46,372 bases of DNA from Candidatus Jorgensenbacteria bacterium RIFCSPLOWO2_01_FULL_45_25b (GTDB lineage: Bacteria > Patescibacteriota > Minisyncoccia > UBA6257 > GWB1-50-10): NCBI GenBank assembly GCA_001781035.1, contig MFKK01000008.1, positions 1 to 46,372 on the forward strand, written 5' to 3'. Below are positions 43,622-46,372 of the stretch, piece by piece. Positions within the stretch are counted from its first letter, which is position 1. Each line of letters starts with the position of its first letter. The translations under genes and the position numbers were made by a program. The notes beneath the pieces are model-generated. The model did not search any database, was not told where the DNA came from, and saw nothing but the letters and a program-made list of their open reading frames with translations.

Positions 43622-45418
<1,797 letters not shown>

Positions 45419-46372
45419 AAGAACCGCGCCTGGCAGGCGCGTAGACAAGAGGGTTAAAATCCCTTCCTCCGATACTCGATCGGAGCGTAGTTGAAAGGTA
45501 GTGGGATGTCGCGAGACATCTTGCGGAGGATCTGGAAACAAAGAACAGCCTATATCAAAAAAAGAGTCGCCGACCTGCGAATGTCCCCGAAAAAGAGTAA
45601 AACTCTCTCGGGGCAGGGTGGTGAGCGCAGGGAAGGTATTTCCCCGTTGGCTCGATGTAGGATGTTTAGAAGTGTTTACGCGTTAACCCAGGGAGATCTG
45701 ATGTCGTCCTCGCCAACGATTTTATATGTGTTATAATCGGTGGGCGAGGTAATGAAACTTACGCGGCGTCAGAAGTCAGCTGGATCATAGTACCCCGCTT
45801 AGCGGGAGAAGGGTCCACTCTGTGCAGAAATATGCATCACGAATATGTTCTTGGTCTTGTTGATGGAGAGGGAAGTTTTACCGTTTATATTCGGAACCCT
45901 TTGGAAGTAACAGCGCGAAAGCGACGAGTTTTGGTAGAGCCAAAATTCTACATAAAACTTGCGGAGGGAGATAAAGATATTCTTTATACTCTGCAAAAGT
46001 TTTTTTCTTGTGGAAATATCTATTTCCAAAAAGATTCTCGTCCTAATCATCAGCATTGTTATCGGTACGAAGTTTCGAAGAGAGACGACTTACGAGAAGT
46101 AATTATTCCGTTTTTTCGTAAGCATTCTTTGCGGTTTCCCTCAAAACAACGAGATTTTCTCTTGTTTTGTCGTCTTTTTCGGATGATTGAACAGGGAATA
46201 CATAAAACTAAGAATGGATTAGAGAAGATGTATCGCATAAAACAGCGTATGCACTAGAGCTCGCGTAGTGCGGGAAATCCGCTCGCTACGCTCCGACGCA
46301 AGGTCGGAGAGTCAATCTTGGCAACAAGCATTGGCTTGGGAACATCAATGTCAAGTTTCTGATAGATAATCG
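45419..46372 (+). mobile_element. Probable group II-type intron in 16S rRNA (3' end outside window; 5' junction approximate)
   Basis: 16S homology stops near 45410-45420; group II-like segments 'taacccagggagatctgatgtcg' and 'ggcgtcagaagtcagctggatcatagtacc' precede the intron ORF. Confidence 0.65.
45832..46257 (+). CDS. Intron-encoded LAGLIDADG homing endonuclease-like protein
   Basis: YVLGLVDGEGSFTVYI motif; FYIKLAEGDKDILYTLQKFFSCGNIYF; HCYRYEVSKRDDLREVIIPFFRKHSLR. Confidence 0.85.
   Translation: MHHEYVLGLVDGEGSFTVYIRNPLEVTARKRRVLVEPKFYIKLAEGDKDILYTLQKFFSCGNIYFQKDSRPNHQHCYRYEVSKRDDLREVIIPFFRKHSLRFPSKQRDFLLFCRLFRMIEQGIHKTKNGLEKMYRIKQRMH

What the first reader, a model, noticed from the sequence alone, without database searches (positions are those of the whole stretch)
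45410..46372. Group II-like intron in 16S rRNA that encodes LAGLIDADG instead of reverse transcriptase
16S homology ends near the decoding region. The following sequence contains motifs typical of bacterial group II introns just upstream of the ORF (aacccagggagatct; cagaagtcagc..gg.catagtacc), yet the ORF at 45832-46257 is a LAGLIDADG protein (LGLVDGEGSF). LAGLIDADG-encoding group II introns are best known from fungal mitochondrial rRNA genes; a CPR rRNA example would be notable. The intron end and 3' exon are outside the window.
Basis: partly seen in the sequence, partly recalled or inferred. Interest (0 to 1): 0.78.

Follow-up and report, generated by a model that had tools for sequence, protein, structure and literature searches.

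The report
16S rRNA intron with homing endonuclease
The 16S ribosomal RNA gene of this tiny uncultured bacterium is interrupted by a self-splicing-type (group II) intron that carries a DNA-cutting homing enzyme instead of the usual reverse transcriptase, a kind already reported in such bacteria, but this copy also has two extra RNA hairpins wedged into the intron's catalytic heart, apparently an undescribed and recurrent variation.

Summary
A 952-nt group II intron (45419-46370) interrupts the single-copy 16S rRNA gene after E. coli position 1399 and encodes an intact 141-aa single-motif LAGLIDADG_1 endonuclease in domain IV, with no reverse transcriptase. Support: covariance models built from relatives without the window (domain III/IV: 81.8 bits, E 3e-20), a compensated domain V helix, and EBS1 (GUGAG) that changes to GUGU in step with exon base 1396 in relatives. 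Empty sites in relatives fix the boundaries. The kind is already known: 53 group II-like insertions, 39 with LAGLIDADG ORFs, were reported at this site in CPR bacteria in 2024, and Thiotrichaceae have the similar family rns-1396. What looks new is domain V: a 46-nt insert forms two perfect hairpins opposite the catalytic triad, making a four-way junction in the ribozyme's most conserved domain. Eight of 75 sampled introns have such an insert at the same point, always folding as two arms, with different sequences, scattered over the LHE tree (at least 6 changes). Splicing with this domain V is inferred, not shown.

The parts
43621..45418 (+). 16S rRNA 5' exon (E. coli positions 1-1399); contains repeat-like expansions in variable-region hairpins
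   Evidence: Rfam RF00177, 1288 bits; the only 16S hit in the genome
45414..45418 (+). IBS1: CUCAC, last five bases of the 5' exon (1395-1399), with host base U1396
   Evidence: pairs with EBS1; U1396 goes with A921 in this class, A1396 with U921 elsewhere
45419..46370 (+). Whole group II intron, 952 nt
   Evidence: boundaries from comparison with empty sites TGTACTCACCGCCCGTCA in 163 of 384 same-class genomes and with about 75 filled sites
45419..45425 (+). 5' terminal linker between exon and the GCGCC-type intron 5' motif (AATAAAA in most relatives)
   Evidence: alignment of 21 introns; such a linker is described for all rns-1396 members (PMC13190283)
45621..45625 (+). EBS1: GUGAG in domain I, pairs with IBS1
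   Evidence: covaries with exon base 1396: GUGRG in 67/67 introns with U1396, GUGUG or GUUGUG in 7/7 scorable introns with A1396
45686..45792 (+). Domain II/III to start of domain IV, conserved core
   Evidence: model R2 built without the window: 81.8 bits, E 3.3e-20; overlaps weak Rfam hit RF01998 group-II-D1D4-1, 28.9 bits
45832..46257 (+). LAGLIDADG_1 homing endonuclease ORF, 141 aa, single motif GLVDGEGSF, in domain IV; ends 2 nt before domain V
   Evidence: Pfam PF00961; PDB relatives I-OnuI, I-PanMI, I-SmaMI, E down to 1e-26; motif invariant in 17 rows
46260..46290 (+). Domain V: 5' strand with catalytic triad CGC (46262-46264), upper hairpin, and 3' strand up to the insert
   Evidence: consensus of 19 relatives with compensated pairs; model R1 36.4 bits, E 1.3e-9
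46291..46336 (+). 46-nt insert in the domain V 3' strand: hairpin A 46291-46309 (CUCCGAC-GCAAG-GUCGGAG) and hairpin B 46310-46336 (AGUCAAU..AUUGGCU), no linkers
   Evidence: absent in most relatives; folds as two hairpins, z -5.6, 0 of 500 shuffles as low; same architecture in 7 other introns
46337..46340 (+). Domain V 3' end (UGGG), partner of the triad strand CUCG
   Evidence: model R1 second fragment 46334-46372, 16.9 bits
46344..46367 (+). Domain VI: short hairpin without an evident bulged branch-point A
   Evidence: consensus fold and sequence
46371..46372 (+). First two bases of the 16S 3' exon (C1400 G1401); contig ends here

Best explanation
This is a mobile group II intron of the CPR 16S-position-1400 type. 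In the pre-rRNA the intron RNA folds, recognises the 5' exon by EBS1-IBS1 pairing (GUGAG with CUCAC), is cut out by its domain V active site and joins the exons at 1399/1400; because no branch-point A is evident in domain VI and there is a 5' linker, the first step is probably hydrolytic rather than branching (inferred). The LAGLIDADG protein acts as a homodimer, cuts intron-free 16S genes at the same site, and the intron is copied in by recombination, not by retrohoming (inferred from the family and from filled and empty sites in relatives). In this copy, and repeatedly in relatives, two hairpins are inserted into the 3' strand of domain V opposite the catalytic triad; they form a four-way junction in which the two halves of domain V can still stack, so the active site is probably kept (shown: sequence and predicted fold; inferred: activity).
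For: DIII-DIV model from relatives E 3.3e-20; domain V of 19 relatives has 14 pairs, 6 of them with double compensatory changes; EBS1/IBS1 covariation with base 1396, 67 versus 7 introns; no group I hit and no RT ORF; LHE intact, LAGLIDADG_1 with invariant GLVDGEGSF-type motif; same LHE and intron at the same site in 20 CPR genomes and about 55 further ones; empty sites in the same family (G612, G666, G686), so the intron is sporadic. Insert: 8 of 75 introns at the same point, all fold as two hairpin arms with the lower domain V stem retained, z -3.4 to -6.9, 4 of 9 pairs of one arm doubly compensated among L020/L030/L078, label scattered over the LHE tree (7 changes, at least 6 forced), DIII-DIV scores of insert-bearing introns within the range of the others.
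Against: No splicing data. The 3' exon beyond 2 nt is not assembled in this genome, so for this organism intactness of the 16S 3' end is unproven. Rfam's domain V model (RF00029) gives no hit in this genome, as expected if the insert splits the match (one search shows the split), but also as expected for a degenerate domain V. Domain I, II and tertiary contacts other than EBS1 were not modelled. The A1396 hosts with EBS1 GUGU are few lineages, so that covariation rests on few events.
Confidence: 0.85

Rival explanations
1. The domain V insert marks a decaying intron that no longer splices by itself; the 16S is then either a pseudogene, functions in two pieces, or is spliced only with help from outside.
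For: The insert sits next to the catalytic triad, where domain V is otherwise uninterrupted; no branch-point A evident; the 3' exon is not assembled here; one of the eight insert-bearing introns, L030, has a broken LHE frame.
Against: The 16S is the only one in the genome and the break lies in the decoding region; the catalytic residues of domain V and the conserved GGGAAC are kept in all eight; LHE ORFs are intact in 7 of 8; DIII-DIV scores are normal; inserts always fold into two clean arms, not expected of decay.
Confidence: 0.2
2. It is a group I intron, with the LAGLIDADG ORF in its usual host type.
For: LAGLIDADG ORFs are mostly in group I introns, and group I introns occur at other places in CPR rRNA loci (RF00028 hits in L025, L026, L028).
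Against: No RF00028 hit at E up to 1 in the window's intron, whereas DIII/DIV, domain V and EBS1 of group II are all present.
Confidence: 0.01
3. The insert is a copy of a genomic repeat (palindromic element) that happened to land in domain V.
For: This genome carries many dispersed palindromic AT-rich repeats, also in its 16S and 23S genes.
Against: The insert has no other copy in the genome (only short chance matches); inserts of other species differ in sequence yet sit at the same point and share the two-arm layout.
Confidence: 0.08

Closest known systems
Group II-like insertion sequences at 16S position 1400 (16IS9) of CPR bacteria (Tsurumaki et al. 2024, PMC11270868)
   Same: Same host clade, same site, LAGLIDADG_1 single-domain ORF, no RT, Rfam group II match
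   Different: The main text does not model the intron or describe its domain V; no insert in it is mentioned in the text searched
Bacterial group II-LHE family rns-1396, Thiotrichaceae (Salman et al. 2012; Liu et al. 2026, PMC13190283)
   Same: 16S gene, site within about 3 nt by the papers' numbering, single-motif LHE in domain IV, 5' terminal linker, EBS1-type recognition
   Different: Host phylum; Liu 2026 states that the bacterial family is confined to Thiotrichaceae and that domain V is 34 nt in most families; direct sequence comparison could not be made here
Fungal mitochondrial rRNA group II introns with LHE (rns-788, rns-952, rnl-2059, rnl-1787)
   Same: Group II ribozyme with LAGLIDADG ORF in an rRNA gene, DNA-based homing
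   Different: Other sites, IIB1 backbone and mostly double-motif LHE (PMC13190283)
I-OnuI / I-PanMI / I-SmaMI family of LAGLIDADG endonucleases
   Same: Their half-domains match the protein over nearly its whole length
   Different: They are two-domain monomers of about 300 aa; this one has a single domain and must dimerise (as shown for I-ShaI of CPR in PMC11270868)

Membership tests
Group II intron | Domain V: short two-part hairpin with AGC/CGC triad, 2-nt bulge and conserved lower stem | tested here: met
   Consensus of 19 relatives with compensation; in the window all residues are present but interrupted by a 46-nt insert; R1 finds both halves
Group II intron | EBS1-IBS1 pairing with the 5' exon | tested here: met
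   GUGAG/CUCAC; changes together with exon base 1396
Group II intron | Conserved DIII / DIV core | tested here: met
   R2 81.8 bits, E 3.3e-20; Rfam RF01998 28.9 bits, below its cut-off of 35 in the window but above it in relatives such as L016, L017, L023, L029
Group II intron | Domain VI with bulged branch-point A | tested here: not met
   Short hairpin without bulged A in the consensus; loss of the branch point is recurrent in LHE-bearing group II introns (PMC13190283) and hydrolytic splicing is known, so this is not decisive against membership
Group II intron | Splicing with exon ligation | not testable with these tools
   needs RNA
CPR 16S-1400 / 16IS9 group II-LHE introns | Site between 16S 1399 and 1400, LAGLIDADG_1 ORF, group II core, CPR host | tested here: met
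rns-1396 (Thiotrichaceae) family | Sequence and structural homology to the Thiomargarita introns | not tested
   No Thiotrichaceae intron could be fetched; only published features compared
Group IIC subclass | Absence of IC2, IIC-type ID and linkers | tested here: inconclusive
   CGC triad and short DVI would fit IIC (own knowledge), but domain I was not modelled
LAGLIDADG_1 homing endonuclease | LAGLIDADG motif with acidic residue and flanking core | tested here: met
   Pfam 58.3 bits versus 23.1 cut-off; motif invariant in 17 rows
Group I intron | Group I catalytic core (RF00028) | tested here: not met
   no match at E up to 1

The most novel reading that the evidence does not exclude
Domain V of these group II introns is an active ribozyme core built around a four-way junction: two extra arms are repeatedly and independently accommodated opposite the catalytic triad, within one or two bases of the point where the spliceosome's version of the same element is discontinuous (U6 internal stem-loop, with the triad paired to U2). 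It would show in living bacteria that domain V can be opened at that point without losing catalysis.
Probability: 0.55. Interest if true: 0.7.

Novelty: new variant of a known kind. Interest (0 to 1): 0.5.

Why it matters
Domain V is described as the most conserved part of group II introns, and no interruption of it was found in the literature searched. Recurrent structured inserts opposite the catalytic triad would show where the ribozyme core tolerates being opened, which bears on how a one-piece domain V could have become the two-RNA U2/U6 core of the spliceosome. There is a practical point too: the standard domain V model misses such introns (RF00029 fails here), so group II introns in CPR rRNA genes are probably undercounted. 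The data also contradict the 2026 statement that bacterial group II-LHE introns occur only in Thiotrichaceae.

Tried and rejected
Rfam group I and group II models: no group I; RF00029 fails in this genome. The terminal 60 bases first looked like a coding sequence on the minus strand or an assembly chimera; alignment with relatives showed them to be the insert, the end of domain V, domain VI and the exon boundary. A copy of the contig end or of the insert elsewhere in the genome: none. 3' exon or a second 16S in the genome: none. The idea that U1396 was brought in by the intron: rejected, since intron-free relatives of the same class carry it too, paired with A921. A single origin of the domain V insert: not supported, 7 changes on the LHE tree, at least 6 forced by well-supported branches, though LHE and RNA histories may differ. 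NCBIfam: no family. Literature for insertions in domain V or a four-way junction there: no relevant paper found; papers outside the open library were not seen, Salman 2012 is not held, and the supplements of the two key papers could not be read.

Full report
What is there. The window is one whole contig (G000:C8) of an 0.8-Mb genome. Its 16S gene starts at 43621 and is continuous up to ...CTGTACTCAC at 45418, E. coli position 1399. From 45419 on an insertion follows. The ORF 45832-46257 is a 141-aa LAGLIDADG_1 protein whose solved relatives include I-OnuI, I-PanMI and I-SmaMI. There is no RT ORF.

Relatives fix the boundaries. The same protein at the same site was found in 20 CPR genomes (Zambryski-, Nomura-, Kaiser-, Yanofsky-, Lloyd-, Morani-, Uhr-, Nealson-, Peregrinibacteria and others), and in many more genomes of the phylum, class and order. 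In most of them the 16S resumes as CGCCCGTCA about 72 nt after the ORF's stop. Intron-free relatives of the same class read TGTACTCACCGCCCGTCA (163 of 384 genomes, among them G612, G666 and G686 of the same family). The intron is therefore 45419-46370, and the contig stops two bases into the 3' exon. The rest of the 3' exon is not in the assembly.

Base 1396 is U in this class rather than A. It pairs with 921, which is A here (GAAUAGACGG) and U in CPR with A1396 (GAAUUGACGG + GUACACA). U1396 is thus genuine 16S sequence and not a trace of the intron.

It is a group II intron. Rfam gives a sub-threshold hit to group-II-D1D4-1 in the window and above-threshold hits in several relatives. A model of the DIII-DIV stretch built from 20 relatives, not the window, finds 45686-45792 with 81.8 bits, E 3.3e-20. 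Domain V was read from 19 relatives: 14 pairs, six with double changes, an invariant lower stem CUCG/UGGG with a CGC triad, and a 2-nt bulge; domain VI is a short hairpin without a bulged A. EBS1 can be checked by covariation: 67 of 67 introns with exon U1396 have GUGAG or GUGGG; 7 of 7 scorable introns with A1396 have GUGUG or GUUGUG instead (one further A1396 intron could not be scored). The lineages are related, so the number of independent events is small, but the direction is exactly what EBS1-IBS1 pairing predicts. A 5' linker before the GCGC(C/G) motif and the missing branch point agree with what is described for LHE-bearing group II introns (PMC13190283) and suggest a hydrolytic first step.

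The part not described before. In 67 of 75 distinct introns domain V to 3' exon takes 61-70 nt. In eight (window, L020, L030, L078, L086, L093, L120, L125) it takes 112-174 nt, and all the extra sequence sits at one point of the domain V 3' strand, opposite the catalytic triad. All eight fold as domain V upper hairpin, arm A, arm B, domain V base: a four-way junction, in the window and L125 with no linker bases at all. The inserts alone are far more stable than shuffled versions (z -3.4 to -6.9; 0-5 of 500 shuffles as low). In L020/L030/L078 arm A has a conserved loop (GUGACU) and 4 of 9 pairs with double changes. The window's insert is 46291-46336: CUCCGAC-GCAAG-GUCGGAG and AGUCAAU-CUUG-GCAA-CAAG-C-AUUGGCU; L125, an intron with a distant LHE, has the same layout with compensated pairs. 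The model R1, built from introns without insert, matches the window in two pieces separated by it, which would explain why RF00029 misses it. On the LHE tree the insert-bearing introns are scattered (7 changes, at least 6 forced), so inserts seem to have come and gone repeatedly at one permissive point. Insert-bearing introns show no clear sign of decay elsewhere: DIII-DIV scores lie within those of their kin and LHE frames are intact in seven of eight.

How it works. Shown: fold conservation, exon pairing, site, intact LHE, presence and absence among relatives. Inferred: splicing at 1399/1400 (the 16S is single copy, and the break is in the decoding region, so removal is nearly obligatory); hydrolytic first step; homing by DNA cleavage of empty sites and repair, as for I-ShaI of CPR (PMC11270868); and retention of activity with the four-way-junction domain V, in which the lower and upper parts can stack as one helix while the arms project. 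From general knowledge, not tested here: in the spliceosome the corresponding strand is discontinuous close to this point (the U6 stem-loop ends and U2 supplies the partner of the triad).

What is known. Tsurumaki et al. 2024 (PMC11270868) already counted 53 group II-like insertions at 16S position 1400 in CPR, 39 with LHE, none with RT, and inferred DNA-based homing. Liu et al. 2026 (PMC13190283) list one bacterial family, rns-1396, only in Thiotrichaceae, as IIC; the CPR introns are overlooked there. So the finding as stated is a new member of a known kind; the domain V insert makes it a new variant. No report of an interrupted domain V was found, within an open-access library only.

Noticed in passing
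window 43900-44073 and 44348-44480: The 16S gene carries palindromic AT-rich expansions in variable-region hairpins whose pieces recur about 40 times elsewhere in the genome, including several places within the 23S gene on contig C34: a dispersed palindromic repeat that has spread into both rRNA genes.
   Followed up: partly
window 43551-43800: Repeats with CGCAGA/TCTGCG motifs upstream of and inside the first variable region of the 16S gene form inverted copies of each other (arms 43551-43587 and 43748-43784).
   Followed up: no
L044, L088, L089, L092: Related LHE ORFs with a group II DIII/DIV core lie a few bases further on, after GTACTCACCGCC or GCACACACCGCC (16S about 1403): apparently a second insertion site of the same intron type.
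   Followed up: partly
L042, L043, L045, L093, L094 and others: A second LHE subtype (about 140 bits) has its intron one base earlier (5' exon GTACTCA or GTACACA, 3' exon CCGCCCG), so the site slides by one base within the family.
   Followed up: partly
L043, L044, L046, L047, L052, L057 against class members: 16S pair 921-1396 is U-A in some CPR and A-U in the window's class: a clean compensatory change next to the decoding centre.
   Followed up: yes
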